Shown piece by piece: positions 26,557 through 46,984 of a stretch of DNA of 64,000 bases (the stretch's first letter is position 1; the number at the start of each line of letters is the position of its first letter). Below the pieces are notes generated by a model. It made no database searches. It was not told the origin of the DNA and was given only the letters and a program-made list of their open reading frames with translations. Made by a program: the position numbers and the translations under genes. The DNA comes from Ignavibacteria bacterium. Lineage in GTDB: Bacteria > Bacteroidota > Ignavibacteria > Ignavibacteriales > SURF-24. Where the stretch lies: positions 62,001-126,000 of the forward strand of contig JAAXKQ010000001.1 of NCBI GenBank assembly GCA_025612245.1, written 5' to 3'.

Positions 26557-27606
26557 ATGGATAATGCTTCTTCGGGGAATACCCCAAAAAGGAAAAAAGA
26601 GCACCTGGAACTCTGCCTTACGGAGAAAGTTGCCTTTAAGAATAAAAGTAACGGACTGGAAAGGTATGAGTTTATCCATAATGCAATTACCGCGCTTGAT
26701 CCGGAAAAAATTGACCTGAGCCGGGAGTTTTTCGGCCACAGGATCAGCTACCCGTTTCTGATTTCCTGCATGACGGGTGGAACATCGGAAGCTGAGAACA
26801 TAAATCAACAGCTTGCCGTTGCAGCAAATGAGTTAAATATTCCGCTTGGTGTCGGCAGCCAGCGCCAGGCGCTTGAAAACAGCCATTTTGCCGAATCCTA
26901 CAGGGTTGTAAGGAAAAATGCACCCGGTATACCCATACTGGGAAATATCGGAGCAGCACAGCTCGTTCAGATGAGCTCGCTCAGGGAAATTGAGTACCTG
27001 GTTGAACTCATAGAAGCGCAGGCAATGGTAATCCACCTTAATCCGCTCCAGGAACTCTTGCAGAAAGGCGGAGATACGAATTTCAGCGGGCTCCTGGAAA
27101 AAATCGAATGGCTGTCGAAAAATATATCTGTACCTGTGGTTGCAAAAGAAGTCGGTGCAGGCATCAGCAAGGCTGCAGCCAAAAGCCTTCTTGAGGCCGG
27201 GGTAAGGGCAATTGACGTAGCCGGGGCCGGCGGAACCAGCTGGGCCGGCGTGGAAATTCTCAGGAACAAGGAAGATGAGAATTCCGAATTCTGGGATTGG
27301 GGGCTTCCAACCTCATACTGCATAAGAGAAGTAAGACCATTAAAGGATGAATATGACTTCCTTCTTATAGCCTCAGGCGGAATAAGCTCAGGAATGGAAA
27401 TTGCAAAAGCAATTGCCCTGGGAGCAGACATGGCAGCTTCGGCCAGAATAGTGCTTCAGAAGCTGCACCATGAAGGGATTACAGGCGTAAAAGAACTTAT
27501 CGTTGGATGGTTTGACGTCGTAAAAAAAGTCATGTACCTGACCGGATCCGCGCGCCTTGAGGAGTTGCAGGAACAAAAACTGATTAAAAAAGAGGAGTTA
27601 TATTGA
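26557..27606 (+). CDS. fni: Type 2 isopentenyl-diphosphate delta-isomerase
   Basis: A 349-residue FMN-dependent (beta/alpha)8 isomerase. Motifs: FFGHRISYPFLISCMTGGTS (FMN-site start), GVGSQRQALE, VIHLNPLQELLQKGGDTNF with the catalytic Gln region, VVAKEVGAGIS, IDVAGAGGTSW, and IASGGISSGMEIAKAIALGADM for the phosphate. It interconverts IPP and DMAPP. Its last four bases overlap the TTG start of the polyprenyl synthase, so the two isoprenoid genes are translationally coupled. No other mevalonate or MEP pathway gene is in the window. Confidence 0.94.
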   Translation: MDNASSGNTPKRKKEHLELCLTEKVAFKNKSNGLERYEFIHNAITALDPEKIDLSREFFGHRISYPFLISCMTGGTSEAENINQQLAVAANELNIPLGVGSQRQALENSHFAESYRVVRKNAPGIPILGNIGAAQLVQMSSLREIEYLVELIEAQAMVIHLNPLQELLQKGGDTNFSGLLEKIEWLSKNISVPVVAKEVGAGISKAAAKSLLEAGVRAIDVAGAGGTSWAGVEILRNKEDENSEFWDWGLPTSYCIREVRPLKDEYDFLLIASGGISSGMEIAKAIALGADMAASARIVLQKLHHEGITGVKELIVGWFDVVKKVMYLTGSARLEELQEQKLIKKEELY

Positions 27607-28595
27607 AAGTACTTCAGAATGAATTTGCCGTATTGTATGAAAAACAGAGACTAAAAATTGAAGATAAAATTTCCAGGGTTCTTATAAACAGGAAACCGGA
27701 GTCGCTTTATGAGCCATGCTCTTATATTATGCAAAGCGGCGGCAAAAGACTGCGCCCGCTTCTGGTGCTTTTTTCAGCCAGGGCCTGCGGCGGGGAATTT
27801 AAGAATGCCTACAATGCCGCTGCTGCCGTGGAGCTGTTGCATAATTTTACGCTCGTGCACGACGACATAATGGATAACGCAGATAAAAGGCGCGGAAGGG
27901 TTACGACTCATAAAAAATACGACCTCAGTACGGCAATCCTGACCGGGGATAACCTGCTTGCCGTGGCATACCTTACTTTACTGAAGGACTGCAGGGAAAA
28001 CGACAAGTCCGTTCTTGCAACCTTTACGCAGGGCGTGATTGAGGTATGCGAGGGGCAGAGCCTGGATAAGGATTTTGAGGTGAGAAAAAACGTGTCTCTT
28101 GCTGAATACCTGGAGATGATAAATAAAAAGACAGCAGCGCTTCTTGAAGTCTGCTGTTCCGTGGGAGCACAGATAGGCGGGGGAAGCAAGGATAAGATTA
28201 AAGCCCTTTCGCTTTTCGGGCGCAACCTTGGAATTGCATTCCAGCTTCAGGACGACCTCCTGGATATAACCGCCAAAGAGGCCGAGTTTGGAAAAATCAT
28301 CGGGGGCGACCTGGTGGAAGGGAAAAAGACATTTTTATTCATCAGGGCGCTCGAGAAGGCCCGGGGTAAGGATAAGACAAAACTCCTTGAGGTAATTAAA
28401 AACAAGGGAATTCAAAAATCCCAGGTTGGTGAATACAGGGATATATACCATAGACTTGGGGTTCTCGAAGAAACTGAAGGCGAAATTGCCCGTTATACGC
28501 GCCTGGCGCTAAAGAGCCTGAAGGCCGTTGAGGATGAAAAGGCCCGCGGCGCGCTTGAATGGCTGGCAAACTCGCTTATAAACAGAAATAAATAA
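27603..28595 (+). CDS. Trans-polyprenyl diphosphate synthase (IspA/IspB-like)
   Basis: A 330-residue all-helical prenyltransferase. Both aspartate-rich motifs are visible: LVHDDIMDNADKRRGR (FARM, DDxxD form, near residue 86) and QLQDDLLDI (SARM, near 216). SGGKRLRPLLVLFSA gives the IPP site. The residues before the first motif (NFTLVHDD) are small-to-medium, so the product may be longer than C15, such as a quinone side-chain precursor; this cannot be settled by eye. Start is TTG with GAGGAG seven bases upstream, overlapping fni. Confidence 0.9.
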   Translation: MKVLQNEFAVLYEKQRLKIEDKISRVLINRKPESLYEPCSYIMQSGGKRLRPLLVLFSARACGGEFKNAYNAAAAVELLHNFTLVHDDIMDNADKRRGRVTTHKKYDLSTAILTGDNLLAVAYLTLLKDCRENDKSVLATFTQGVIEVCEGQSLDKDFEVRKNVSLAEYLEMINKKTAALLEVCCSVGAQIGGGSKDKIKALSLFGRNLGIAFQLQDDLLDITAKEAEFGKIIGGDLVEGKKTFLFIRALEKARGKDKTKLLEVIKNKGIQKSQVGEYRDIYHRLGVLEETEGEIARYTRLALKSLKAVEDEKARGALEWLANSLINRNK

Positions 28596-28684
28596 ATTGA
28601 TAGTTTGTGCGTATTGACTGAAATTATAGTGAACAGGATAATTCTTTTTAGAAATTAATAAAAATTAAAGGTTTCATTAGAAAA

Positions 28685-28951
28685 ATGCTTGAAAGGAAAG
28701 TTGTAATTGTAAACAATGCAGGGCTGCATACACGTCCTGCTGCTACTATTGTTAAACTGGCGGCAAAGTACAAATCTGAATTTTTTATCAATAAGGACGG
28801 CTTGAACATAAACGGGAAGAGCATTATCGGTGTCATGACGCTGGCTGCCGAAAAGGGTTCTGAGCTGATGCTGGTCTTTGACGGTGAGGATGAAAATGAG
28901 GCTGCCGAGGAAATAACGAACTACTTTAACAGGGGCTTTGACGAATTGTGA
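28685..28951 (+). CDS. ptsH: PTS phosphocarrier protein HPr
   Basis: An 88-residue HPr with the active-site histidine in NAGLHTRPAA (His15) and the regulatory serine in NGKSIIGVM (Ser46). The presence of Ser46 suggests control by HPr kinase, which is not in this window. Its stop overlaps the GTG start of ptsI by four bases. No EII permease gene is present here, so it could serve a distant PTS or act mainly in regulation. Confidence 0.95.
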   Translation: MLERKVVIVNNAGLHTRPAATIVKLAAKYKSEFFINKDGLNINGKSIIGVMTLAAEKGSELMLVFDGEDENEAAEEITNYFNRGFDEL

Positions 28952-30705
28952 AAAAGTTAAATGTTGCGGATTCTAACATACTAAACGGAATAGCTGCGGC
29001 TCCGGGAATTGCAATTGCTCATGCATATCTTTATGAGAAAGAAAAGCTTGAAATTAAGGATGGTGCAGTAACGGATACGAAAGAGGCGGTTGAGAACCTT
29101 AAAGAGGCAATTGAAAGGTCGAAATACGAGCTCAGGAAGGTATTTACCATTGCTACGGAAAAGATGGGGAAAAACAGGGCCGCCATTTTTGAGGCACAGC
29201 TGATGATTTTAGACGACCCCGTTTTAATTGAACAGATTATCAGGAGAATTGAAACAGAGAAGAGGCTCCCCGAATTCATCGTAAACGACGAGATCACACG
29301 CTACCAGGAACTGATGAACGCCTCGGATGAACTTTACATGAAGGAAAGATCGCAGGACATAGAGGACATTAAAAACAGGATCATCAGAAACCTCCAGAAA
29401 AAAAGACTGCAGTCGAAAATCACCAGCCAGGTCATTGTCGTAACTTCCTCACTGACTCCTGCAGACACGATACTTTTTTCAAAAAGCAACGTTAAAGGCT
29501 ATATAACGGATTTTGGCGGACTGACCTCGCATGCGGCCATCGTTTCGAGGTCGCTGAAGATCCCGGCTGTTGTAGGAACACACGACGCAACCTCAAGGAT
29601 AGAGAATGGTGACCTGGTAATTATGGACGGCTTTCACGGTATCGTGATCTTAAAGCCGGATGAAACACAGCTTAGTTTTTACAGGAATAAGATTGAAAAA
29701 CTCACACAGTTCGATAAAGAGCTTGCAGAGCTGAAGGATAAGCCCGCCGTTACGCTTGACGGCAAGGAAATCGTCATCCGCGGGAACATTGACATTACCG
29801 ACGAGGTGGACTTTCTCGTTCAGAACGGTGCAAAGGGGATCGGTCTGCTTAGAACCGAACAGGTCTTCGGCGGCCTTGATACATTCCCGGGCGAGGATGA
29901 GCAGTTTGTGGCCTACCACGAGCTCGCGGAGAAAATTTACCCCGAATACGTCATCATCAGGGCCTTTGACGTCGGGGGCGACAAGTTTTTGCCGCATGAC
30001 GTCAAGGAACCTAACCCGTTTTTAGGCTGGCGCGGAATAAGGTTCCTCCTCGATAACCCGGAAATATTCAAGACGCAGATTAGGGCCATATTAAGGGCAA
30101 GCATTCATAAGAATATTAAACTCATGCTCCCGATGGTGGTTTCACTGGAAGAGGTAAAAAGGTCGAAAGCCCTTCTTAAGGAGTGCAAGGATGAATTAAG
30201 AAAAGAGAAAATAAAGTTCGACCAGCACCTTAACCTTGGAATCATGATCGAAGTGCCTTCGGCTGCCGTGCTGGCAAAGGAATTCGCAAATGAAGTGGAC
30301 TTCTTAAGCATCGGGACCAACGACCTGATACAGTTTTTGCTGGCTGTAGACAGGGGCAATGAAATTGTCTCTATGCTTTACCAGGAATTCCACCCGGCTG
30401 TAATTAGGACGATAAACCAAATCATAAAGAACGGTCAAAGAGGGCATGCATTTGTCAGCATGTGCGGCGAAATGGCCGGAGACACCATTGCCATTCCTTT
30501 ACTGGTGGGAATGGGTCTGGATTCACTTAGCGTCTCGCCTTCTTCAATTCCGTACATTAAAAGAATTATCAGAAATCTGCATTTTTCCAAGGCGCAGGAA
30601 CTTGCCGGTGAATGCCTGGGCATGAGCTCTCTACAGGAAGTAACCGAGAGGATAGAAAAGTTCTTTTCTGAAAATTTAATTCAGCAGACAAATAACTTTA
30701 TGTAG
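28948..30705 (+). CDS. ptsI: PTS enzyme I (phosphoenolpyruvate-protein phosphotransferase)
   Basis: A 585-residue cytosolic kinase of standard EI length. Domains: HPr-binding helical domain (about 1-145), phosphohistidine domain with DFGGLTSHAAIVSRSLKIP (His near 190), and the C-terminal PEP-binding TIM barrel with GIGLLRTEQVF, RAFDVGGDK, FLSIGTNDLIQF and the proton-donating Cys in SMCGEMAGD (near 510). It transfers phosphate from PEP to HPr. Start is GTG, overlapping ptsH. A terminator-like hairpin follows 45 bases after the stop. Confidence 0.95.
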   Translation: MKKLNVADSNILNGIAAAPGIAIAHAYLYEKEKLEIKDGAVTDTKEAVENLKEAIERSKYELRKVFTIATEKMGKNRAAIFEAQLMILDDPVLIEQIIRRIETEKRLPEFIVNDEITRYQELMNASDELYMKERSQDIEDIKNRIIRNLQKKRLQSKITSQVIVVTSSLTPADTILFSKSNVKGYITDFGGLTSHAAIVSRSLKIPAVVGTHDATSRIENGDLVIMDGFHGIVILKPDETQLSFYRNKIEKLTQFDKELAELKDKPAVTLDGKEIVIRGNIDITDEVDFLVQNGAKGIGLLRTEQVFGGLDTFPGEDEQFVAYHELAEKIYPEYVIIRAFDVGGDKFLPHDVKEPNPFLGWRGIRFLLDNPEIFKTQIRAILRASIHKNIKLMLPMVVSLEEVKRSKALLKECKDELRKEKIKFDQHLNLGIMIEVPSAAVLAKEFANEVDFLSIGTNDLIQFLLAVDRGNEIVSMLYQEFHPAVIRTINQIIKNGQRGHAFVSMCGEMAGDTIAIPLLVGMGLDSLSVSPSSIPYIKRIIRNLHFSKAQELAGECLGMSSLQEVTERIEKFFSENLIQQTNNFM

Positions 30706-31130: not shown

Positions 31131-33953
31131 TTGCTTATAAGTAGAATTAAATATCTGTTATTTTTTCTGCTGCTCTTAAATAGCGCAGTAGCTGCTCAGT
31201 TTTATTTCTTTGGAAGAAATAAAGTACAGTATGATAATTTTAACTGGAAAGTACTTAAAACCGAGCACTTCGATATTTATTTTTATGACGACTTTGAGGA
31301 AATGGCCGAAATCGGGGCTTCATTTGCAGAAGAAGCCTTTTCCGACCTCAAGGTCAAGTTCAATAACGTCGTTACGGGTAGAATTCCCCTAATTTTCTAT
31401 AACACGCACATTCACTTCCAGCAGACAAACACCACGCCGGGCTTTATACCAGAAGGCGTCGGGGGCTTCTTTGAGTTCCTGAAAGGGAGGGTTGTAATTC
31501 CATACCTCGGGTCCATAGACGGCTTCAGGCACGTCATCAGGCACGAACTGGTGCACGTCTTTATGACAAACAAGATTTACCGGGTCCTTACGGACCACAG
31601 GGTAACAACCGAAAGGTATCCGCCACTGTGGTTTACAGAAGGCCTTGCCGAATTCTGGTCCACCACGTGGGATGAACAGGCGGAAATGGTAATGAGGGAT
31701 GCCGTAATAAACGACCAGTTTGTTGGGCTAAAGGATATCTATGCCATATTCGGCACATTCCAGATGTACAAGGAAGGGCAGAACCTGCTGGAGTTTATTT
31801 CTGAAAAATACGGCAAGGAGAAGATAGGACTTTTGCTGGAAAACTTCTGGCAGTTTGAAAGCTTCAACGACCTCATGGAATATGTGATCGGAAAGTCCAT
31901 TGATGAGATTGACAAGGACTGGAACTTCTACCTGAAACAGAGGTACTTCCCGCTGATGAAGACAAAAATCCCTCCTGATAACGGCGCACAGAAGCTTACG
32001 GACTTCGGTTTTAATTTTTCGCCCTCATTCTACAGGAAAGATAACGAGCCCTACGTGTACTTCGTTGCCAACAGGGACGGATATTCCTCGATCTATGAAC
32101 TGCCGTTAAATAATTTTGAGAAAGAAAAAGACCGCCCGAAGCCTGAGATTCTCGTGCGCGGCGAAAAAGAAGAGGTCTTTGAGGCGTTCCACCTTCTGGA
32201 TGCATCCCTGAGCGTCTCAAAAGACGGCATAATTGCCTTTATTACAAAGACCGGGGGAACAGACGCACTTCACTTCTATTCAATCCGTGAAGGGAAAGTC
32301 CTGAAGGATTACCAGAACAATGAACTGATCAGTATGTCGTCTCCAAGATGGTCCTCGGACGCAAAAAAAGTCGTCTTCCAGTCAATAGACAGAAGGGGCT
32401 ATTCCGACGTTTTTGTCTATAATTATACAGATGGAAGCCTCTTAAGAATTACAAACGACTACTACAGCGACATTAATCCGGTTTTTGGGAAAAACGACAC
32501 GACGGTGGTATTTGCCTCCGACAGGACTGAAGGGCTCTACAAGAAAAAGTACAACCTTTTTGAGTTCAGCCTGAATGACCATTCGATGCGCTACCTGACC
32601 TATTCAGACGCGAACAATAAAAGCCCTGAATTCAGCCCCGACTATTCCTCGCTTTACTTTACCTCAGATTACGACGGGATACAGAATATCTGGAAGCTGG
32701 AAGAAAGCCAGGGCAAGCCTTCCGGAATGACGCAAATGACGAATTTCATTACGAGTGTCTTCGACTACACATTTACAAATAATAACGAAATTGTGGCCTC
32801 GGCATTTGAAAAATTTTCATTTCAGCTCTACAGGATAAAGCTAAGGGAGCCCGCCGACTCGCTCTACAGGTACGTGCCCTTTGATTTTACGCTTACCGAC
32901 GGCAAATGGGTGGCCGCGAAATTAAAAGGCACTTCAATAAAGGAAAAGCTGAAATACGAGAACAAATATACGCTCGATTATGCGCAAAGTCAGGTGACGA
33001 CAGACCCCGTCTATGGCACACAGGGAGGGGCACTTTTTTCGTTAAGCGACCTTTTGAGCAACGACAACTACTATTTCCTCATCTATAATACTGCTGAGGT
33101 TCAAAGCGATATACTGAAAAGCTTTAACGTGGCAATCTCCAGGATAAACGTGGGCAACAGGGCTAACTACGCTTACGGGCTTTTCCACTATAGCGGTAGG
33201 CGCTATGACATAATGGATTCGGATGAGTACTATTTTGAAAGGAGCTTTGGAGGTTATTTTACGCTTTTCTACCCGTTTTCCAAGTTCTCAAGGATTGAAA
33301 CCAGCGTCTCCCTGGCCAACTCCGACAAAGAGGTAATTGAAAACGTTGTTGAAAGGAAAGCCCTGCTTGCTACAAATTCCATTTCCTACGTGCTGGATAA
33401 TTCGCTCTGGGGACCGACAGGGCCGCTCGACGGGACGCGTTTCAGGGTGCTTTTGAGCTTTACAAATGACGTTAAATACAGCAACGTCAACTACTATACT
33501 TTTATATTTGACTTCAGGAACTACTTCCGCCTGGGCTATAAAAGCGCCTTAGCCCTCAGGACGACACTTTTATACAACGACGGAAGGGAAGCCAGGCGCT
33601 ACTTTATGGGCGGAAGCTGGGATTTGCGCGGCTGGCCACGCTGGTCCATCAGAGGACAGAAGCTTTGGATATCTTCGATGGAACTGAGATTTCCCCTGAT
33701 TGATCTTTTTGCAGTCAGGTTTCCTTTTATTGATATCGTCTTCCCGAACATCAGGGGCGCTCTTTTCTTCGACAGCGGCGGTGCCTGGGATAAAAACTAC
33801 GAGGAAACTCTGGGAAGCGTGGGCGGCGGAATCAGGATCAACCTCTTTGACATAATTACGCTGCGCTACGACATTGGCAAAAAAATTCAAAATAACTTTA
33901 AGGAATTTCAGCCTAACCTGTTTTACCAGTTTTTTATCGGATGGGACTTCTAA
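31131..33953 (+). CDS. Outer-membrane fusion: metallopeptidase (MA-like), TolB-type propeller, Omp85-like barrel
   Basis: A 940-residue exported protein starting at TTG (31131), with a hydrophobic signal (about residues 4-23). Residues 40-280 look like a gluzincin peptidase of the MA-like group: FRHVIRHELVHVFM gives HELVH at 138-142 and WFTEGLAEFW provides the downstream Glu near 168. Residues about 285-600 hold TolB/PD40 propeller blades such as SPRWSSDAKKVVFQS and FSPDYSSLYFTSDYDG. Residues about 640-940 form a beta-barrel resembling the Omp85 C-terminus: MGGSWDLRGWPRW corresponds to the lid-lock (V/I)RG(F/Y) motif, then FFDSGGAWD, and a terminal aromatic. Role unknown; an outer-membrane assembly or quality-control factor is an inference. 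Confidence 0.75.
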   Translation: MLISRIKYLLFFLLLLNSAVAAQFYFFGRNKVQYDNFNWKVLKTEHFDIYFYDDFEEMAEIGASFAEEAFSDLKVKFNNVVTGRIPLIFYNTHIHFQQTNTTPGFIPEGVGGFFEFLKGRVVIPYLGSIDGFRHVIRHELVHVFMTNKIYRVLTDHRVTTERYPPLWFTEGLAEFWSTTWDEQAEMVMRDAVINDQFVGLKDIYAIFGTFQMYKEGQNLLEFISEKYGKEKIGLLLENFWQFESFNDLMEYVIGKSIDEIDKDWNFYLKQRYFPLMKTKIPPDNGAQKLTDFGFNFSPSFYRKDNEPYVYFVANRDGYSSIYELPLNNFEKEKDRPKPEILVRGEKEEVFEAFHLLDASLSVSKDGIIAFITKTGGTDALHFYSIREGKVLKDYQNNELISMSSPRWSSDAKKVVFQSIDRRGYSDVFVYNYTDGSLLRITNDYYSDINPVFGKNDTTVVFASDRTEGLYKKKYNLFEFSLNDHSMRYLTYSDANNKSPEFSPDYSSLYFTSDYDGIQNIWKLEESQGKPSGMTQMTNFITSVFDYTFTNNNEIVASAFEKFSFQLYRIKLREPADSLYRYVPFDFTLTDGKWVAAKLKGTSIKEKLKYENKYTLDYAQSQVTTDPVYGTQGGALFSLSDLLSNDNYYFLIYNTAEVQSDILKSFNVAISRINVGNRANYAYGLFHYSGRRYDIMDSDEYYFERSFGGYFTLFYPFSKFSRIETSVSLANSDKEVIENVVERKALLATNSISYVLDNSLWGPTGPLDGTRFRVLLSFTNDVKYSNVNYYTFIFDFRNYFRLGYKSALALRTTLLYNDGREARRYFMGGSWDLRGWPRWSIRGQKLWISSMELRFPLIDLFAVRFPFIDIVFPNIRGALFFDSGGAWDKNYEETLGSVGGGIRINLFDIITLRYDIGKKIQNNFKEFQPNLFYQFFIGWDF

Positions 33954-35122
33954 TGAAAAAAGCAGACTGGAAGATAAATAAATTATACCTGAACACGATT
34001 TTAATGGCTTTTGTATCCATTATTCTATGGGGCTGCTCCAGTACAATTCACATTCCGGAGGCAAAGCCCGGGGCAGAGACATACGCCATGTTCGGTTCGG
34101 GGCCTGAACGTGCTTTTTTTGTCCCGGTTAACATCGGCGATACACTGAAGCTCAGGTGGGAAGGGGATATAAACGGAGGGTTTGCTCCTACTTCTATTAC
34201 TGCATACGGAAATTATGTTTTTGTGCCCGACCTCTCGGGAAGAATTTACGCATTTGACGCCATAAAAGGAAAGGAATTAGGTTTTATTAAGTTTAAGGGA
34301 TCCATTATTCCGGCTCCTATTGTAGAGCAGTTTGTGCTCACATTCCCGCTTACGGGATACAAGGAAGACAATTCGGTGATCTATAATTACAACTTTCATT
34401 CCGGGCAGGAGACAGCCAAATTTGAGGTCCAGGGGAAGGTGGAAACTGAGCCGGTCAGGATGCAAGACGGCATTGTTTTTCTTACAGAGCAGGGAAAGGC
34501 TATAAAATACAGTTCTTCAAATGAAAAACTATGGGAATTCGACTCCAAGGGTTTTATACACTCTTCCGCCGCTTCCTCGGGAGATAACATAGTCTTTGGA
34601 AACGACAAGGGAATAATTTTTAACATCGACGCAAAGACCGGTTCCTTAAAATACCAGAAAAACATTGGAAATGGCTTTGAAGGCGGTTTTGCAATCTCAG
34701 GGGATACGGTCTTTACTGCCGACAACTCCGGCACCGTCTATTGCTTCAGGCTTTCTTCGGGGGATGTGTTGTGGAAATATGCAACGGGGTATAAGATAAA
34801 CGTATTTCCGGTTTCTGACGGTAAGTACGTCTACATTGGCAACCTGAGAGGGGATATATATAAACTTCAGAAGAATTCGGGCAAGCTTCTGTGGAAAGTT
34901 TCCACGGATGGAGTCATTAATACTACTCCCCTGCTTTTCAAGGATTACCTGGTGCAGCCGGATCTGAACAAGAAACTTCACCTCATAAATGTAGATACCG
35001 GACATATAAAGAGAACAATGAACTTTGAGGGGAGGAACAGGCTTTCACCGGTTTATTACGGAGGAACTCTTTTTCTGGGTATAGACAATGGAAAGGTTAT
35101 GGCTTATGAAAGCGCCAGGTAA
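33953..35122 (+). CDS. PQQ-type beta-propeller lipoprotein (BamB-like)
   Basis: A 389-residue protein whose ATG overlaps the preceding stop (TAATG). An N-terminal hydrophobic stretch ends in the lipobox ILWGC (Cys near 28). The rest is repeated four-stranded blades with PQQ_2 features, for example YGNYVFVPDLSGRIYAFDAIKGKELG, and VYCFRLSSGDVLWKYATG with the typical tryptophan-docking W. BamB, the closest well-known lipoprotein propeller, is a scaffold in the Bam complex. Its coupling to the Omp85-like fusion upstream supports a similar partner role, but direct homology to BamB cannot be asserted by eye. Confidence 0.78.
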   Translation: MKKADWKINKLYLNTILMAFVSIILWGCSSTIHIPEAKPGAETYAMFGSGPERAFFVPVNIGDTLKLRWEGDINGGFAPTSITAYGNYVFVPDLSGRIYAFDAIKGKELGFIKFKGSIIPAPIVEQFVLTFPLTGYKEDNSVIYNYNFHSGQETAKFEVQGKVETEPVRMQDGIVFLTEQGKAIKYSSSNEKLWEFDSKGFIHSSAASSGDNIVFGNDKGIIFNIDAKTGSLKYQKNIGNGFEGGFAISGDTVFTADNSGTVYCFRLSSGDVLWKYATGYKINVFPVSDGKYVYIGNLRGDIYKLQKNSGKLLWKVSTDGVINTTPLLFKDYLVQPDLNKKLHLINVDTGHIKRTMNFEGRNRLSPVYYGGTLFLGIDNGKVMAYESAR

Positions 35123-35126
35123 TAAA

Positions 35127-35852
35127 ATGTTAATAAGGGCAATGCTGACTATTTTTCTTGCTGTGCCTTTTTTTACGCTGCAAGCCCAGGATTGCACCTC
35201 GCTGCTGAATATTTCAACAGGGGATTCCTCATCCGTAATATATCTGAATGACTCCTATCTTGGCAGCGGACGGATTTCAAGGGAGGTAAAGAAGGGCAAA
35301 TATAAGATACTGATTAAAGATGAAGCCAGGAAGTGGGGAGCTCAGGAGATAGTGGATTCCATAAGCATAAATGAATGCGGAAAAACAGAAAACCTGGAAT
35401 ACAGCTTTAAGAAAACCGTTTACTTAAGGACAATACCGGACAACGCGGAGGTTTACTTCAGGGATTCTCTTCTGGGCAGTACGCCCCTGTCCATTTATAG
35501 AACAGTCCCGCAGGTGGAAATCAGGAAGACAAATTACAAGCCCGTATTCCTGACGGCAGAGGATCTGGCCCAAAACCCCTTAATTGACCTGGATTTTATG
35601 GGAAAAAGAGCCCCCGAAAGCTTCTTTAAGACAAACCTTTTCAAAATTCTTGTTGGCTCAGCCATTGCACTTGGAACTACCGCGGTTTATTACAAGCTGA
35701 AGGCAAACAAAACCTACGACCAGTACAATGAAACCAAGGAAAGTACGCTTATGGACAAGACTAACAGGTATGACCTATACAGCGGCATAGCCTTTGGAGC
35801 ACTGCAGGTCAATTTTGGTGCCCTGATATACTTCTTTTTTGTAAATGAATAG
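35127..35852 (+). CDS. PEGA-domain membrane protein
   Basis: A 241-residue protein from the ATG at 35127 (AGGT upstream), which gives a clean signal peptide (MLIRAMLTIFLAVPFFTLQAQ). Earlier in-frame ATG codons lie inside the previous gene. Two PEGA-like modules follow: one around SSVIYLNDSYLGSG, the second around LRTIPDNAEVYFRDSLLGSTPLSI, the classical PxxAxVxxxxxxxGxTP pattern. Two hydrophobic helices near residues 170-190 and 215-238 anchor it. PEGA modules are carbohydrate- or protein-binding beta-folds common on surface proteins. It is the last gene of a three-gene unit; a new unit seems to start 140 bases on. Confidence 0.75.
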   Translation: MLIRAMLTIFLAVPFFTLQAQDCTSLLNISTGDSSSVIYLNDSYLGSGRISREVKKGKYKILIKDEARKWGAQEIVDSISINECGKTENLEYSFKKTVYLRTIPDNAEVYFRDSLLGSTPLSIYRTVPQVEIRKTNYKPVFLTAEDLAQNPLIDLDFMGKRAPESFFKTNLFKILVGSAIALGTTAVYYKLKANKTYDQYNETKESTLMDKTNRYDLYSGIAFGALQVNFGALIYFFFVNE

Positions 35853-35990
35853 CTTTTAATGACTTACGAGCATTGAGCCTTCTTTTTTTACCCCTTTATA
35901 TTTTCTAAAAGCAAAAAGAATTTTGTTGCTATAGACATTGAGAATGGTTATTTTTTTGTGCCCAAAAATATACCATTAATGAATAGCTTA

Positions 35991-38081
35991 ATGAAAACAA
36001 AATTTTTACTATTCCTATCAATATTATTCTTTTCTGCCTTCTCGGTCTATGCCCAGGATGGACAAAAAAGAATTAATAAAATAACTGATGACGATAATTC
36101 AAAGTATACCAACATCGGAAATATAGGCCTTACGCTTACAAATTTCGGCATGTATGGAAACGGATTCAGCGGAACCTGGCCAAAGCAGCCCTCGTGCGAA
36201 TACCCTCTGGGAAGCGGCATTGAACACATATTTGCCGGGGGACTCTGGGTCGGAGGCTATATTAGCAAAGATCCCTCAATTAACGGCAGCAAGACCGGAC
36301 CTTTTGTAACAACAGGGGCAGTTGACAAATCCTCAGTCTCCTCCCGCGGCGGCGGTTTTGAGTACACGAACCTTCCCGGCAGCCGTATTGTTGAAAGATC
36401 CAGCCTCCTTACTTCCAAGAATTTTAACCCGCAGGCCGTATCGCATCAGGATTTCGTCATGGATTTCGTGGACACAAACCGTGTCCTGGTCGGTTCAAGC
36501 AACGAACCAATTCCCGACCATACGCCCCTTGGCATTGCAGTTCACCAGGAAGCTTATGCCTGGAACTATACCTTCGCCAATTTCTTCGTCATAATGAACT
36601 ACTGGATCAAAAACGTCACCGATAAGTATCTCGACAGCGTTTTTGTAGGCCTCTGGACGGACACGGTAATCAGAAACACGATAGTTTCACCTCCCGGAAC
36701 GAGCAACTTTTTTACGCATGGCGGGAACGGCTATTCCGATTCCTTGAGGATCGGCTACGAATTCGACTCCAACGGAGACGTCGGCTTTACGGACAGCTAC
36801 GTCGGTGTACAGTACCTGGGCTCAACACCAGAGAAAAACGGAGCAAATTTTGTCAGCTGGACGCACTCAAACACAAGTGATGTAATTTATTTTACGCCAA
36901 TGGACGACATGCAGAGATATGCCAAGATGAACGGCTTTTTTGCCGATGGCATCAGGCTTCAGAACATTAATCCCGCAAACCTGCAGGCTCCAAGCAACCG
37001 CTCAATTTTAATGACCGCAGGGCCGTTTTCTCAGATTGCCCCGGGAGACTCCATAAATGTTTCATTTGCCATTGTATGCGCAAAGAAGTACGGCACTGAC
37101 CTGGCTTCACTCGATACAAAAGAAGAGAAGAAAAACCTCTTCTCAAATGCCGGCTGGGCACTCAGGGCTTATAACGGCGAGGACAGAAACGGCAACGGCG
37201 TTCTGGATCCGGGTGAGGACCTGGACGGGGACGGCAAAATTAAAAGGTTTATCCTGCCTGCGCCGCCTGCTTCTCCGGAGATCAAGGTGGTTCCCGAGGA
37301 CAGGAAAGTTGCAATTTACTGGGATAAGCATGCCGAGGAATCTATTGACCCCATCTCTTCAAAAAAGGATTTCGAAGGCTACAGGCTTTACAGGACAAAT
37401 GCCGGTTATGACCTTACTGCAACGCAGGACGTACTGGGATCTTTAGTCCTTCTCTCGGAATTTGACAGCCTTAATAATTCGGTTGGCTACAACACCGGTT
37501 TTTCAAAGGTAAGGCTGAATGAGCCCGTGACGTTCCCGGGAGATACGAACAAGTACTACTATAAATTTGAAATTGACAACCTCTTAAACGGCTGGCAATA
37601 TACATACTCTGTAACAGCTTTTGACAAAGGGGACCCGGGCAATGACCTCGAAAGCCTTGAATCAAGCGTGCTTGCTTCCTCAAGGCGCGTAATACCGGGA
37701 ACACCTGCAACCTCAGATAAAAACGTTCAGATAGGAGTATATCCGAACCCATATTACGGGAGCGCATACTGGGATGGCTCTTCTGAAAGGTTGAGGAAAA
37801 TATATTTTTATAATCTTCCGGCAAAATGTGAAATTACGATTTACACACTTGCCGGCGACATTGTAAAAAGAATACAACACGATTCCAATAGCAATGGAAG
37901 CGATTTAAGATGGTTTGAAACTTATGCTAAGGATGGTAAGCAGATAATGTCGGGCGGCGAACACGCCTGGGATATAATCAGCGATAATGATCAGGCCATT
38001 GCAAGCGGGTTGTACTTGTTTACTGTAAAGGATTCCAATACCGGCGAAATTAAAACCGGCAAATTCCTGATCATTAAATAA
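35991..38081 (+). CDS. Large secreted protein with FN3-like and C-terminal sorting-like domain
   Basis: A 696-residue protein starting at ATG 35991, with signal peptide [22 protein letters not shown]. The first about 400 residues are a conserved-looking beta-rich domain of unknown function ([32 protein letters not shown]). Next is a calcium-loop segment [18 protein letters not shown], an FN3-like domain ([19 protein letters not shown]), and a C-terminal beta domain with VYPNPYYGS and a final GKFLIIK, which matches T9SS type A sorting in outline. It is probably displayed on the surface. It heads the second envelope block, but its product is unrelated to known SusD proteins. Confidence 0.7.
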
Positions 38082-38161
38082 AAAGCCCGGTTCTCTTTAA
38101 GCCTTGTTTAATTGCAGGGTACTCCGGATTTATTTTGTTATTAACATATTATGAGGTAATT

Positions 38162-40312
38162 ATGAAACTAAAATATTTACTGATTTTTTCACTGCTTTTG
38201 AGCGCTTCCTCCTTTGCTCAGAGGGTTTATCCCTTAAAGACCATCAGGGAGATTCAGTTCCATTCTGATGAGGATCTTTTGGCAGGTAAACAGGCAGCAG
38301 CTATAACCGATACGGTGAGGATCCGTGCAATTGCAATGCACAGCACACTGAGGGATCCGAATAGCTCAACCTCGCAGCCTTTTATTTTCCCTACCAGTAC
38401 TTCAGGCCTGGTGTTGTACGTCCAGGATTCAACAAAGGAATGGGGGGGAATGCAGGTATATCAGGGCGGCCAGTCAATCTCTACTTCACTCTGGACAGCA
38501 GATTCCGCACAGTATATCGAGTTTACTGGCTATGCCAAGGAATATAATGCTGTAACAGAGTTTATGCTGGTTACCACTCCTGTTCCAATTCCGATCAACA
38601 CACTCGACCAGGCAAAAAACAGGCCTGCTCCGGTTGAACTGAAGCTGAGTGATTTAGTGGAAAACGGACAGATGAACCCACTTGCTGAAAAATATGAGAA
38701 CATGTATGTCATCCTAAGAAATGTCACCGTTATCAACAGGAATACGGCAGACGGTTCCTTCATGATACAGGATGAGAAGGGTAATTCAATGTATATGTAC
38801 GCCCAGTCGGGATACAATGCAATAAAGAAATATCCTTTTACCGGCTACACCGGTTACGTCCTGCCGCAGAACGGCGCAAAACTCGACTATATAAAGGGTA
38901 TAATTACGGACAGGTGGACCGAATCTTCAACATCACACAAAGGGTACTACATCTCACCATTGTATCCTGAAGATATTAAGATCGGGGCACAGCCGCCTAT
39001 TATTTCCAACATCAAGAGAAATACGGATTTAGTTACCCCAAATCAGGCAGTTGACGTTACCGCTTCCATTATGCCCCAGGCAGGCGGCAGCATCAGTGAA
39101 GCCAAGGTTTTCTACAGGGTAAACGGCAGCGCATACAGTTCGCTTGCAATGACAAAGACTGCAGATACAACAGTCTTCAAAGCAACAATTCCTGCCGGAG
39201 CAAAAGATTCGGCTCTGGTTGACTTTTATGTATGGGCAAAAGACAACATTAACCAGGAAGCTTCCAACCCGGCTGTTTTAGATACAGGAAAAAGCAACTA
39301 CCTTTACATGGTTCTAAACAGGCCTCTTACTATAAAGGACGTTCAGTACAGTCCCTTTGGCGGCGGCTACGGTCCTTATTCAGGTTACAAGGTTACACTT
39401 ACCGGTGTAGTTACTGCCGATACATCAGACATACCGGGTAACGGCGGAACATACCTTGAACAGCAGAGAATATTTATGCAGGATGGCTCGACCCCGTGGA
39501 GCGGAATATGGGTCAAAGGAGCAAAAGTCCTTGGCGTAAAAAGAGGCGACAAGATTACTGTAAGCGGAATGGTTATTGAAGACTACAATCTTACCAAGCT
39601 CGATTCCATTACGGCATTTACAACGGTCTCGTCAAATAACCCGCTTCCAGCACCGGTTGAGCTTTCAACGAGTGACATTGCAACAAAGACAAACGGTACG
39701 GTTGATGCAGAAAAGTACGAAGGCATGCTCGTAAAATACAATAATGTTACAATTGACAAGCAAAATGCCGATGACAATACAAAGTATAACGACGGCGAAA
39801 TTCTGGTATCTGACCAGTCCGGAACCGGTACAAGAATTGAACTTAATGACGGAGCTGCTACCTACCATAACAGCTGGGATACACTGATTGTCAAGAACAC
39901 CAACTGGACGGCATTGTACAAAGGCAACAAGTTCAGCAGCATAACCGGCGTTCTTATCTTCAGCGACAGCAATTACAAGCTCGTCCCAAGGAAAAACGAC
40001 GACTTCCAGGGCTATGTAAGCGGAGTTGAATCCGTAAATGTTACCCCTGCAGCATACGGCCTGAGCCAGAATTACCCGAATCCGTTTAACCCTTCAACTG
40101 TAATTGAATATACAATTCCAAGGGGTTCAATGGTTTCATTGAAGGTCTTTAACCTGCTTGGGCAGGAAGTAAAGACACTGGTAAACCAGTTCCAGAACGG
40201 CGGAACCTACAAGGCAACTTTTGATGCAAGCAGACTGCCTTCAGGAATTTATTTCTACCAGCTGAATGCAGGCAGCTTTAACTCTGTAAAGAAAATGCTT
40301 CTTGTGAAGTAA
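38162..40312 (+). CDS. Secreted OB-fold-like repeat protein with T9SS sorting domain
   Basis: A 716-residue protein from ATG 38162 (GAGGT upstream), signal peptide [20 protein letters not shown]. Two similar modules (about residues 30-280 and 390-625) each have strands of the type [25 protein letters not shown] and [20 protein letters not shown], which look like the OB-fold domains found beside secreted nucleases. An Ig-like region lies between them. The C-terminus is a clear type IX sorting domain: [18 protein letters not shown] to KKMLLVK. No nuclease active site is visible. It may bind a ligand at the cell surface. Confidence 0.78.
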
Positions 40313-40361
40313 TTTTTGGGCAATAGAGTTTTAGTGTGCTCTTATTTTTAGGCTTTGTTTT

Positions 40362-40406
40362 CTCCCGCTTCCTCTAGAAAAAAAAGGAAGCGGGAGAATG
40401 TTTTTG
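40362..40406 (+). terminator. Terminator after the OB-fold-like T9SS gene
   Basis: CTCCCGCTTCCT and AGGAAGCGGGAG form a perfect 12-bp stem around an A-rich loop, followed after three bases by TTTTT. It divides the two T9SS genes from the lipoprotein/TonB unit, so these are at least two transcripts. Confidence 0.82.
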
Positions 40407-40507
40407 ATCATCATTTCGTCTTTTGTGTTATCGCAAGCTCTATTAGTTTAGAAATAATTGAAGTTGTATCTAAAGGATAATTTCTCAATACCATTTAACT
40501 TAATAAA

Positions 40508-42088
40508 ATGAAGAAGCTTTTACGTTTTGTACCTTTTATACTTCTGGCTCTTTTTATTTCGGCGTGCAACGAAGGTATTACGGATCTACTCTCGCCGAAT
40601 GAAGCCCCGCATACTTACATGTCCCTGATGCCAGATGGCGACATATCAAAGCAGCCCAGCAAGCTGAAGGTCAGCTGGTGGGGTGACGACCCGGACGGCC
40701 TGGTTGTAGGATATTATTTTACCTGGGACGACGTGCACTGGTCGTTTACGACAAGAAACGACAGCACATTTGCCTTAAAGATCGGAGCCTCAGATGTAAA
40801 TTATAATTTCAAAGTTGCTGCCGTAGATAACGGCGGAAACGGCGTCTACGACAACTCGGTTGTCCAGAATGGTATTGATTTCGGGCCTGAGCCCTTTATT
40901 GACCAGAACGGGGACGGCAAGTATAACCCCGGTGAAAAGTTTTTTGATATAGGTCTTATAGATCCCAAGCCAGCAAGCCAGAGGTACCCAATAAAAAATT
41001 CGGCCCCGAGCCTGCAGTTTAACAAGCTGACTGAACTGCCCGCAGTTTCTTATCCCGTAATGACTTTAGGCTGGGACGCAGGGGATATTGACGGGGATGA
41101 GACAATTGTAAAGATTAACATTGCCCTTAACGATACGACAAATTTTGTAAGTCTGCCCGGCAACACAAGGCTCGTCATGCTGCGCATGAGGGACTTCAAT
41201 ACACCGGGAGCACAGACAGAGATATTGCTCAACGCTTCGGAAGGAAGCGTATTTCCACAGAAGCTAAGCGGCCTGAAGCTGAATGACTACAACAGGGTTT
41301 ACATTCAGGCTGAGGACGTTTCGGGCGCAAAAAGCAGCTTTACGGCACTGCCGTCGGCTACAAAGAAGTGGTACGTCAAGAAACCCGTAAGCAATCTGCT
41401 TATCATTGACGATAATAAGAGTGATGATGCTGCAACGGATTTCTACAAGACTGCCTTTAACGGCATGCGCGGCGGAGCTCTATCGGGTAAATATGAACTC
41501 TGGGATATAATCAATAACAAAGTCCCATATGAAAACCTGACTTTTTATGAAACGCTTAAATTCTTTAAGTACATATTCTGGTTCTCGGATGACGCGCCGA
41601 ACCTTTCGCTTGCAAGCATATCATCCAGGAAGTTTGTTGATAATGGCGGGAAGATAACATTCTCTATGTCCTTGCCTGCAAAGCTGGACAACAATGCCAC
41701 GCAGACTGAAAACAACGTGATGCTGAATAATTTATTGAGGTCTTTCCTCCCGGTTGATTCCGTAGGCGGCACGTTTAAGAAAGATTTCATTACTACACTG
41801 TTTACCAGCAATGGTAATATTTCCAGTCCTAATTCGGAGTATCCGGCTTTGAAGTCAATTTCATCGCTTTACTCCGTAAGAACTGTATATCCTAAAGAAT
41901 CGTATGCTTATCCAATTTATAACCTTGAGACCTCGCTCATATCCGGCAACAAGACAATTGGCATAAGGGATTCCGGGAAGAAATTGTTTTTTATTGCACT
42001 GCCTCTTTCTAAAGTTGACGGCAACCAGGGGAATGTGAAACTGTTACTGGAAAAGATCTTTTTTGAGGACTTTGGTTTAACATTATGA
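40508..42088 (+). CDS. Outer-membrane lipoprotein with FN3-like and GATase-like domains
   Basis: A 526-residue lipoprotein with lipobox FISAC (Cys20). The first half contains FN3/Ig-like strands (KLKVSWWGDDPDGLVVGYYFTWDD) and a calcium-loop segment DQNGDGKYNPGEKFFD. From about residue 295 a Rossmann-like domain begins with SNLLIIDDNKSDDAATDFYKTAF and continues through FFKYIFWFSDDAPNLSL; this resembles the amidotransferase-like (GATase-1 fold) domains of secreted proteins, but no catalytic Cys-His pair is seen. It occupies the position where a SusD lipoprotein would stand next to a SusC receptor, without SusD features. Its stop overlaps the receptor's ATG (ATGA). Confidence 0.72.
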   Translation: MKKLLRFVPFILLALFISACNEGITDLLSPNEAPHTYMSLMPDGDISKQPSKLKVSWWGDDPDGLVVGYYFTWDDVHWSFTTRNDSTFALKIGASDVNYNFKVAAVDNGGNGVYDNSVVQNGIDFGPEPFIDQNGDGKYNPGEKFFDIGLIDPKPASQRYPIKNSAPSLQFNKLTELPAVSYPVMTLGWDAGDIDGDETIVKINIALNDTTNFVSLPGNTRLVMLRMRDFNTPGAQTEILLNASEGSVFPQKLSGLKLNDYNRVYIQAEDVSGAKSSFTALPSATKKWYVKKPVSNLLIIDDNKSDDAATDFYKTAFNGMRGGALSGKYELWDIINNKVPYENLTFYETLKFFKYIFWFSDDAPNLSLASISSRKFVDNGGKITFSMSLPAKLDNNATQTENNVMLNNLLRSFLPVDSVGGTFKKDFITTLFTSNGNISSPNSEYPALKSISSLYSVRTVYPKESYAYPIYNLETSLISGNKTIGIRDSGKKLFFIALPLSKVDGNQGNVKLLLEKIFFEDFGLTL

Positions 42089-44898: not shown

Positions 44899-44899
44899 T

Positions 44900-45877
44900 A
44901 TGAAGAAATTATTAATAATATTTTTTGTTTGCATTCTGAGCTTTGAGGCAAAAGCTCAGCTCTTTCCGACCCTGGGCGGACAGAGGGCTGGTATTTCGGC
45001 GCTTCAGTTCCTTAAGGTTGGTGTGGGCGGAAGAGCCGCTTCAATGGGCGACGCCTTTGTGGCTGTGGCAAATGACGTTTCCGCACTATACTGGAACCCC
45101 GCGGGACTGATTCAGGCACCTTCGGACCAGGTGATGTTTTCACATAATGAATGGCTCGTGGACATAAAGCACGACTTTGTTGGAGGGCTTTACCACCTGA
45201 ACTCAAACGATGCCGTGGGCTTCGCACTTACGTCACTTCACATGAAAGACATGCCTGTTACAACCGAAACTCAGCCTTTCGGAACGGGTGAGTACTTTAC
45301 ATTCGGCGACGTTGCCTTTGCTGTTTCATATTCAAGAAAGATGACTGAGCAGTTCAGCTTCGGCGGCAGCATCAGGTACGTCGAGGAAACGATGGACAAG
45401 CTAAAGATGCGCGGCGTGATGATAGACCTGGGAACATACTACTGGACCGGGCTGGGTACCTCGAGGTTTGCCGTTACGGTAAGCAACTTCGGCAACAATA
45501 TGGCCCCCGATGGCGACGTCGTTTTGTTTGGCGGCAGAAAACAGTCGCAGTGGCAGTCTTTTTCACCCCCTACAATATTCAGGATCGGCTTTGCTTTTGA
45601 ACCTTACCAGTCGGAAGACCAGATGGTAACTACTTCAATTCAGCTGAACCATCCTAACGACAACAGCGAAAATGTTTCAACTGGTGTTGAATATAAGTGG
45701 AAGAATATTTTTTTCATACGCGGCGGCTATAAGTTTAATGTTGAAGAACAGAACTATTCGCTTGGTGCAGGTGTAAGAATGCCGCTTCGCGTGGCCGACG
45801 TAACTTTTGACTATGCCTTCTCGAACTTTACACGTCTCGGGTCGGCTCACAGATTATCATTAATCCTGGGTTTTTAA
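44900..45877 (+). CDS. PorV/PorQ-family outer-membrane barrel protein
   Basis: A 325-residue protein with signal peptide MKKLLIIFFVCILSFEAKAQ and a FadL/PorV-like barrel. It has the family opening LKVGVGGRAASMGDAFVAVANDVSALYWNPAGL, later YSRKMTEQFSFGGSIRYVEE and a terminal LSLILGF. PorV is the T9SS outer-membrane shuttle that delivers cargo to the attachment complex; PorQ-like relatives are common in Ignavibacteria. It lies directly between the TonB receptor and the NHL lipoprotein with no gaps, which suggests a dedicated partner rather than the general secretion shuttle. Confidence 0.83.
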   Translation: MKKLLIIFFVCILSFEAKAQLFPTLGGQRAGISALQFLKVGVGGRAASMGDAFVAVANDVSALYWNPAGLIQAPSDQVMFSHNEWLVDIKHDFVGGLYHLNSNDAVGFALTSLHMKDMPVTTETQPFGTGEYFTFGDVAFAVSYSRKMTEQFSFGGSIRYVEETMDKLKMRGVMIDLGTYYWTGLGTSRFAVTVSNFGNNMAPDGDVVLFGGRKQSQWQSFSPPTIFRIGFAFEPYQSEDQMVTTSIQLNHPNDNSENVSTGVEYKWKNIFFIRGGYKFNVEEQNYSLGAGVRMPLRVADVTFDYAFSNFTRLGSAHRLSLILGF

Positions 45878-46984
45878 ATGAACTATAGAAAAATAATAAT
45901 GCCATTATTCCTGGCAATATTTGCATTTATTGCGCTTGACTGCGACAAGAATAAACTTGATTTAGAGGGAATCATTGCCTCGCAATCCGGTTCGGATGCC
46001 GGGAAAATCGGCGATACGGTGTATGTAAAGATGAAAGATGACTGGACCGGCTTTGACCATCCCATGGACATAATAGTAGGGACGGAAGATAACACCATTT
46101 ATGTTGCAGATACCTACAATGACAGGATTGTAATGATGAATGTTGCAGGTCAGATTGAAAGCATAAGGAGTGTTAAACATCCGACCGCTCTTGGCATTGA
46201 TCACCTGCAAAACCTGATTGTCTGCGCTCAGATGGAGACTATAATCCAGGGCAAGACCGAGACTGTAAGTGCAGTGTACAAATTTGACATCAGGGCAGCC
46301 GGAGGCCAAATTGCCAACGCCCCGATGTCCAGGATACTGCCCACAAATAACGACCTCAGGTTTATTGATGAAGTAAGGCGCCGTGAATATACGGGAGTCT
46401 GTGTCTTTGCAGACAATTCATTTTATATCAGCAGAAAGGGCTCGGTTAACCAGGGAACATATGACCCTGACAATTCAATACTCATTTTTCAGAAAACCGT
46501 GTCAAAAGAAGATACGCTTATCGGTCCCGTGCCAAATATAACTGCCGATGGAACGGGTTTACTTTCTGCCAACAATATCAGCTCGCTTACCTCCTTCAAG
46601 GGGCAGGGCATGGATATTCTGGTGACGCTCATCGGGCAGAACAGCTTTAAGACACAGTGGCTGCAGTTTGTCTCCACGAACACATACACAGGCTACATCA
46701 ATAAGCTTGAGCCCTCAAATGCCCGCATGATGGCGGTCAACCGCTTTCAGCAGCCCGAGGACGCTGCAGTTGATGAGAGCGGGAATATATTCATTGCCGA
46801 TGCGGCAAAAGACAGCATTTTCAAGTTCAGCCGTTATGGCGAGGAGTTGGAATCCTTTGGCGGAAGCTCCGTCTTCAAGCATCCTTACGCAGTTGCCGTT
46901 TATAATAAGGTCGTCTACGTGGCCGATACGGACAATAACCGCATCTTAAGGTTCCAGCTTTCAACTGACGCCGAGTCGAAGTAA
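45878..46984 (+). CDS. NHL-repeat beta-propeller lipoprotein
   Basis: A 368-residue protein whose ATG follows the previous stop without a gap. A hydrophobic N-terminus ends at IALDC (Cys near 23), an acceptable but imperfect lipobox. The rest is a propeller with NHL motifs: PMDIIVGTEDNTIYVADTYNDRIVMMN near residue 65, PEDAAVDESGNIFIADAAKDSIFKFS near 290, and PYAVAVYNKVVYVADTDNNRILRF near the end. NHL propellers bind proteins or ligands. It ends the lipoprotein-receptor-PorV-NHL unit. Confidence 0.82.
   Translation: MNYRKIIMPLFLAIFAFIALDCDKNKLDLEGIIASQSGSDAGKIGDTVYVKMKDDWTGFDHPMDIIVGTEDNTIYVADTYNDRIVMMNVAGQIESIRSVKHPTALGIDHLQNLIVCAQMETIIQGKTETVSAVYKFDIRAAGGQIANAPMSRILPTNNDLRFIDEVRRREYTGVCVFADNSFYISRKGSVNQGTYDPDNSILIFQKTVSKEDTLIGPVPNITADGTGLLSANNISSLTSFKGQGMDILVTLIGQNSFKTQWLQFVSTNTYTGYINKLEPSNARMMAVNRFQQPEDAAVDESGNIFIADAAKDSIFKFSRYGEELESFGGSSVFKHPYAVAVYNKVVYVADTDNNRILRFQLSTDAESK

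What the first reader, a model, noticed from the sequence alone, without database searches (positions are those of the whole stretch)
31131..35852. Protease-propeller-barrel fusion coupled to a propeller lipoprotein and a PEGA protein
One protein seems to join an HELVH metallopeptidase, a TolB-like propeller and an Omp85-like C-terminal barrel with an LRGW lid-lock equivalent. It is followed without a gap by a BamB-like lipoprotein and then a PEGA membrane protein. The set reads like a self-contained outer-membrane assembly, secretion or quality-control machine.
Basis: partly seen in the sequence, partly recalled or inferred. Interest (0 to 1): 0.65.

Follow-up and report, generated by a model that had tools for sequence, protein, structure and literature searches.

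The report
Outer-membrane barrel carrying a metallopeptidase
Many bacteria of this group carry a protein that joins a probable zinc protease, a propeller-shaped docking domain and an outer-membrane barrel, and it is kept or lost together with one particular lipoprotein even when the two genes lie far apart, so the two very probably work as one envelope machine, most likely trimming or clearing proteins at the outer membrane.

Summary
Window 31131-33953 encodes a 940-aa protein with a gluzincin-type metallopeptidase domain, a TolB-like propeller and a POTRA-less 16-strand Omp85 barrel (AlphaFold2 pLDDT 84, pTM 0.80). Zinc-site residues H138, E139, H142 and E170 are invariant in 163 homologues; Omp85 residues R833, E851 and D881 in every homologue that has the barrel. 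A BamB-like lipoprotein gene follows with a 1-base overlap, then a PEGA protein with a C-terminal hydrophobic hairpin. The BamB-like gene sits directly behind the fusion in 86 of 93 loci; PEGA is third in 64 of 71. Across 197 genomes of the class, 122 of 123 with the fusion carry the lipoprotein, against 1 of 74 without it; the link survives in 34 genomes where the genes are not neighbours. Fusion and lipoprotein are one functional unit; PEGA is looser. The architecture is partly known: 'WD40-Omp85' was described in 2014, but that text mentions neither a peptidase domain nor partner genes. Best reading: an outer-membrane-tethered periplasmic metallopeptidase for processing or quality control, a BepA-like job by different parts. 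Activity, substrate and topology are untested. Canonical BamA is present elsewhere, so this is an accessory system.

The parts
31131..33953 (+). 940-aa fusion protein: N-terminal signal segment, metallopeptidase, TolB-like propeller, Omp85 barrel (TTG start; exact start not proven)
31209..31982 (+). peptidase domain, residues 27-284; zinc site H138 E139 H142 E170, Y213 also invariant; poorly predicted but nearly invariant loop at about 97-117 just before edge strand 121-125
   Evidence: PF13485 37.1 bits; invariance in 148 + 15 homologues; gluzincin fold, Z 15.7 to M9 collagenase and 15.5 to M30 lugdulysin
31986..32945 (+). TolB-like beta-propeller, about residues 286-605
   Evidence: PD40 38.1 bits; TolB Z 25.8, rmsd 2.4-2.5 over 246 residues
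32967..33950 (+). 16-strand Omp85 barrel, residues 613-940, with LRGW loop motif (R833), E851, D881 and C-terminal F940
   Evidence: PF01103 49.4 bits; 16 strands; BamA Z about 21; R833, E851, D881 and F940 in 148 of 148 A-type proteins
33953..35122 (+). BamB-like PQQ-repeat propeller lipoprotein, lipobox Cys28
   Evidence: PF13360 84.6 bits; Cys28 in 67 of 67; no acidic surface-export motif after the Cys in 67 of 67
35106..35852 (+). PEGA protein with N-terminal hydrophobic segment and C-terminal hydrophobic hairpin (start may be the in-frame ATG at 35127)
   Evidence: PF08308 32.4 bits; hydrophobic segments at 178-196 and 226-247 of the 248-aa protein; invariant G190, K197, A200, D223

Best explanation
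The fusion is an outer-membrane protein whose POTRA-less Omp85 barrel anchors an active-looking gluzincin zinc metallopeptidase and a TolB-like propeller on the periplasmic face of the outer membrane. The BamB-like lipoprotein, anchored in the inner leaflet, is its dedicated partner and probably helps capture or present substrate; the PEGA protein, probably held in the inner membrane by its hydrophobic hairpin, is a frequent third part that may link the unit to the inner membrane or wall. The most likely job is processing or proteolytic clearance of outer-membrane proteins or lipoproteins during or after insertion, comparable to what BepA does on the BAM complex. Shown here by sequence, predicted structure and comparative genomics: the domain architecture, invariance of the zinc site and of the Omp85 signature residues, gene order, and co-retention of fusion and lipoprotein. 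Inferred: peptidase activity, periplasmic topology, physical complex, quality-control role, PEGA's place and role.
For: Domains and folds. H138, E139, H142, W167, E170, G171 and Y213 are invariant in 148 A-type and 15 B-type or other proteins, so catalysis is under strong constraint; R833, E851 and D881 are invariant in all 148 A-type and the 14 B-type proteins with a barrel. BamB-like gene next to the fusion in 86 of 93 loci, mostly with overlapping starts; same order in other classes of the phylum. Presence in 197 genomes: 122 of 123 against 1 of 74; within one genus 7 of 7 against 0 of 6 with the genes on different contigs. Lipoprotein without surface-export motif. Precedents: the enzyme domain of the Omp85 protein PlpD is periplasmic (PMC11116518); BepA works on BAM-bound LptD (PMC8423444).
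Against: No activity or substrate evidence. The peptidase could cut something other than outer-membrane proteins. The prediction alone does not fix which side of the membrane the soluble domains lie on. Physical contact between fusion and lipoprotein was not modelled. In some genomes the lipoprotein lies elsewhere, and PEGA is missing or too diverged in several. The fusion is dispensable at the level of species.
Confidence: 0.5

Rival explanations
1. It is an outer-membrane protein assembly factor: the barrel inserts other barrels as BamA or TamA do, the propeller and BamB-like lipoprotein replace POTRA and BamB, and the peptidase is a secondary editing part.
For: Omp85 barrel with the conserved loop motif R833 and its partners E851 and D881; Heinz and Lithgow 2014 read WD40-Omp85 proteins as a BamA-BamB-like fusion (PMC4104836); the partner lipoprotein is BamB-like.
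Against: No POTRA domain in the model; canonical BamA present in the same genome; absent in 74 of 197 genomes of the class; the zinc site is as conserved as the barrel motif.
Confidence: 0.22
2. The barrel is a secretion pore or anchor that puts the peptidase and propeller on the cell surface (type Vd-like).
For: Early model for PlpD; Omp85 relatives of the TpsB type secrete partners (PMC4104836).
Against: The archetype PlpD was shown to keep its enzyme domain in the periplasm (PMC11116518); about 570 residues of well-folded peptidase and propeller would have to pass a 16-strand barrel; the partner lipoprotein lacks the acidic surface-export motif in 67 of 67.
Confidence: 0.08
3. A maturation peptidase for a specific exported class (type IX cargo, lipoproteins or wall-bound proteins), not quality control.
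For: Strict conservation of the active site; genes with type IX sorting tails and a PorV-like gene lie just downstream in the window; PEGA domains are often envelope-linked (general knowledge).
Against: SprA of the type IX system is present in 195 of 197 genomes of the class, with and without the fusion, so type IX secretion does not need it; the downstream type IX-tailed genes are mostly not kept next to the trio.
Confidence: 0.2

Closest known systems
WD40-Omp85 subfamily (Heinz and Lithgow 2014, PMC4104836)
   Same: N-terminal TolB-like beta-propeller joined to an Omp85 barrel without POTRA
   Different: The main text describes no peptidase domain and no partner genes; here a gluzincin domain precedes the propeller and a BamB-like lipoprotein is co-retained. 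Whether this exact lineage is in their cluster could not be checked (supplements not available)
PlpD / FplA patatin-Omp85
   Same: Enzyme domain fused N-terminally to an Omp85 barrel; enzyme domain shown periplasmic in PlpD
   Different: Lipase, not peptidase; has a POTRA; no propeller; no co-retained lipoprotein reported in the text read
BepA (with YcaL and LoiP)
   Same: Periplasmic zinc metallopeptidase acting at the outer membrane on barrel proteins
   Different: M48 family with TPR repeats (BepA) or lipid anchor, no barrel and no propeller
BAM complex (BamA plus BamB)
   Same: Omp85 barrel associated with a PQQ-propeller lipoprotein
   Different: BamA has POTRAs and no enzyme; the lipoprotein here is below the BamB equivalog cut-off; canonical BamA coexists
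TolB
   Same: Propeller fold, Z 25.8
   Different: 73.8 bits against the TolB cut-off of 343; propeller is fused to a peptidase and a barrel
Paralogue B in the same genomes (L034:5833-9069, 1078 aa)
   Same: Same peptidase, propeller and barrel order, same invariant zinc site
   Different: Sits after a large TamB-like ORF (TamB not confirmed by Pfam) and RNase R, not with the BamB-like and PEGA genes; found almost everywhere in the class

Membership tests
Omp85 superfamily | Barrel recognised by the Omp85 profile | tested here: met
   PF01103 49.4 bits, cut-off 24; 51.1 bits in the genome search
Omp85 superfamily | 16-strand barrel | tested here: met
   16 strands between 613 and 938 in the AlphaFold2 model
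Omp85 superfamily | (V/L)RG(F/Y/W) loop motif with acidic partners | tested here: met
   R833, E851 and D881 invariant in 148 of 148 A-type proteins; equivalence to BamA R661, E717 and D740 is from general knowledge and by-eye comparison
Omp85 superfamily | At least one POTRA domain (classical definition) | tested here: not met
   No POTRA in Pfam scans or model; Heinz and Lithgow include POTRA-less families by the barrel
WD40-Omp85 subfamily | TolB-like propeller N-terminal to an Omp85 barrel | tested here: met
WD40-Omp85 subfamily | Listed in the published cluster | not testable with these tools
Gluzincin metallopeptidases (clan MA(E)) | HEXXH plus downstream Glu zinc ligand | tested here: met
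   H138, E139, H142, E170 invariant in 163 proteins
Gluzincin metallopeptidases (clan MA(E)) | Fold | tested here: met
   M9 collagenase Z 15.7 (rmsd 3.4, 223 aligned), M30 lugdulysin Z 15.5, M1 about 13-14
Gluzincin metallopeptidases (clan MA(E)) | Peptidase activity | not testable with these tools
   Needs purified protein
BamB (second gene) | Equivalog model TIGR03300 above cut-off | tested here: not met
   109 bits against 285.2
BamB (second gene) | Lipoprotein with PQQ-type propeller repeats | tested here: met
   PF13360 84.6 bits; lipobox Cys in 67 of 67
TolB | Equivalog model TIGR02800 above cut-off | tested here: not met
   73.8 bits against 343
PlpD-type patatin-Omp85 | Patatin domain | tested here: not met
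   Peptidase_MA_2 and gluzincin fold instead
BepA | M48 peptidase family membership | tested here: inconclusive
   No M48 profile hit; fold search ranked M9, M30 and M1 first

The most novel reading that the evidence does not exclude
A dedicated outer-membrane proteolytic machine unlike BAM, TAM or BepA: the Omp85 barrel works as a gate that engages stalled barrel proteins or lipoproteins and hands them directly to a covalently attached metallopeptidase, with the BamB-like lipoprotein as obligate co-factor, and an ancient second copy (type B) allied with a TamB-like protein.
Probability: 0.2. Interest if true: 0.85.

Novelty: new variant of a known kind. Interest (0 to 1): 0.62.

Why it matters
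How bacteria without the E. coli set of envelope proteases clear or process outer-membrane proteins is poorly known. A protease built onto an Omp85 barrel, with a partner lipoprotein identified by co-retention, gives a concrete and testable candidate across Ignavibacteria and neighbouring classes. It also adds an enzyme class to the list of Omp85 fusions and shows that an uncharacterised Omp85 subfamily noted in 2014 has relatives with a conserved active site and a conserved partner.

Tried and rejected
Direct Pfam scan of the whole 940-aa protein missed the barrel; scanning the C-terminal part alone found it. Plasmid search found only distant matches, among them a Salinibacter peptidase-propeller protein of 633 aa without a barrel; the next gene is a serine carboxypeptidase-like protein, so it is not a split form of the fusion. 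The idea that the trio belongs to type IX secretion was tested with SprA, which is present in 195 of 197 genomes whether or not the fusion is present, so the test does not tie the two together. The upstream block (isomerase, polyprenyl synthase, HPr-size ORF, PtsI, PGI/PMI) is conserved gene order but not part of the unit: it is gone in L052, L076, L110, L149 and L153 while the fusion and the BamB-like gene stay. First neighbour counts missed lipoproteins in high-GC loci hidden by antisense ORFs; repeated with profile search of all frames. Complex prediction of fusion plus lipoprotein was not possible with the tool. Literature searches for an earlier description of the peptidase-propeller-Omp85 arrangement found none; the library lacks most subscription journals.

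Full report
What is there. The window (G000:C14:62001-126000) comes from a relative of Ignavibacteriales and Melioribacteraceae, judged by the named closest loci.

Domains of the large protein. Scanned in parts, it shows Peptidase_MA_2 (37.1 bits, cut-off 32.4), PD40 propeller repeats (38.1, cut-off 20.9) and Omp85 PF01103 (49.4, cut-off 24); the genome-wide search rings PF01103 at the same place with 51.1 bits. AlphaFold2 with 74 sequences gave pLDDT 84.4 and pTM 0.80, with a peptidase domain to about residue 284, a propeller at about 286-605 and exactly sixteen barrel strands between 613 and 938; there is no POTRA domain. Against solved structures the propeller matches TolB (Z 25.8) and the barrel matches BamA (Z about 21). 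The peptidase domain folded alone (pLDDT 81.8) matches gluzincins: M9 collagenase Z 15.7, M30 lugdulysin Z 15.5, M1 aminopeptidases 13-14.

Conservation. H138, E139, H142, W167, E170, G171 and Y213 are invariant in 148 A-type proteins and in 15 B-type or other relatives. R833 of the LRGW loop, E851, D881 and the C-terminal F940 are invariant in the A-type; R833, E851 and D881 are also kept in all 14 B-type proteins that have the barrel. Equating R833, E851 and D881 with the BamA residues R661, E717 and D740 rests on general knowledge and comparison by eye with the genome's own BamA. Residues 97-117 are poorly predicted yet largely invariant and lie just before the edge strand 121-125, which suggests a mobile lid or substrate loop; PlpD has a mobile lid at its active site too (PMC11116518).

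Partners. The second protein is a PQQ-repeat propeller lipoprotein (PF13360 84.6 bits), with the lipobox Cys in 67 of 67 homologues and no acidic surface-export motif in any of them, so it probably faces the periplasm. It is BamB-like but far below the BamB equivalog cut-off (109 against 285 bits). The third has a PEGA domain and two C-terminal hydrophobic segments; most homologues share these (47 of 55).

Neighbourhood. In 93 loci with room, 86 have the BamB-like gene directly after the fusion, mostly with overlapping starts; in 71 with more room, 64 have the PEGA gene third. These loci include some near-identical records of the same species. With profile searches the same order is seen in other classes of the phylum (L183-L202). 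An upstream block of FMN-dependent isomerase-like, polyprenyl synthase, HPr-size ORF, PtsI and PGI/PMI genes is often conserved too, but the fusion and the BamB-like gene stay together when it is gone.

Co-retention. A-type fusion is present in 123 of 197 genomes of the class (counted). The BamB-like gene at E below 1e-40 is present in 115 of these 123; seven more have a diverged copy, six next to the fusion and one at a contig edge, leaving one fragmentary genome. Of 74 genomes without the fusion, one (G142, 94% complete) has the full-length lipoprotein; hits in others are partial matches to longer PQQ-type proteins. Five of the 74 were not rechecked at the looser threshold. In families f8, f10 and f15 all 34 carriers have the two genes on different contigs or more than 20 kb apart, and still 34 of 34 carriers against 1 of 10 non-carriers have the lipoprotein. 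Within genus g34 it is 7 of 7 against 0 of 6. Fisher p-values ignore shared ancestry, so the separate families that hold both states (f2, f3, f5, f8, f10, f19) are the stronger argument. PEGA follows the lipoprotein in f8 and f15 but was not found beside it in f10 (G085).

Relation to known systems. Heinz and Lithgow (PMC4104836) defined a WD40-Omp85 subfamily with a TolB-like propeller and likened it to a BamA-BamB fusion; the text names no peptidase in it (their 'Metallo' subfamily is PF00149, another domain). PlpD shows that an enzyme domain on an Omp85 barrel can stay in the periplasm (PMC11116518). BepA shows that a periplasmic metallopeptidase can act on barrel proteins at the BAM complex (PMC8423444). 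The cryo-EM study of Bacteroidota BAM mentions no BamB, propeller or peptidase (PMC12611786). I found no earlier description of this arrangement.

How it probably works. Most likely an outer-membrane-tethered periplasmic protease whose substrates are brought by the propeller and the lipoprotein, doing processing or quality control of outer-membrane proteins. Steps shown: architecture, constraint on both active site and barrel motif, partnership by gene order and co-retention. Steps inferred: catalysis, topology, physical complex, substrates. Canonical BamA is present elsewhere, so general barrel insertion need not depend on this protein.

A second copy. Type B (about 1030-1120 aa) has the same domain order and zinc site and follows a large TamB-like ORF and RNase R in many genomes; it is found almost everywhere in the class and in relatives beyond. 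The TamB-like label is mine; the TamB Pfam model found nothing in this genome and the ORF has no significant Pfam match.

Noticed in passing
L034:5833-9069 (G000:C18) and L061-L071, L073, L074: Paralogue B, same peptidase-propeller-barrel order, follows a TamB-like ORF and RNase R in many genomes; may be a TamB partner.
   Followed up: partly
window 26557-30705 and L041-L202: Long-conserved gene order upstream: FMN-dependent isomerase-like, polyprenyl synthase, HPr-size ORF, PtsI, PGI/PMI; the PGI/PMI gene is missing between PtsI and the fusion in the window but present in most relatives.
   Followed up: partly
window 31419-31481 (fusion residues 97-117): Largely invariant but low-confidence loop (QTN..GFIPEGVGGFFE) next to the peptidase edge strand; candidate active-site lid.
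   Followed up: partly
L075:5923-7821 (Salinibacter ruber plasmid pSR116): Barrel-less peptidase-propeller relative, 633 aa, annotated 'basic secretory protein-like', followed by a serine carboxypeptidase-like gene.
   Followed up: partly
window 35958-46984: Downstream genes with type IX sorting tails, a TonB-dependent receptor, a PorV-family protein and an NHL-repeat protein; mostly not conserved next to the trio.
   Followed up: no
PMC4104836, section 10: The published 'Omp85-metalloprotease' subfamily is based on PF00149, which is the calcineurin-like phosphoesterase domain (general knowledge), so that name looks like a misreading.
   Followed up: no
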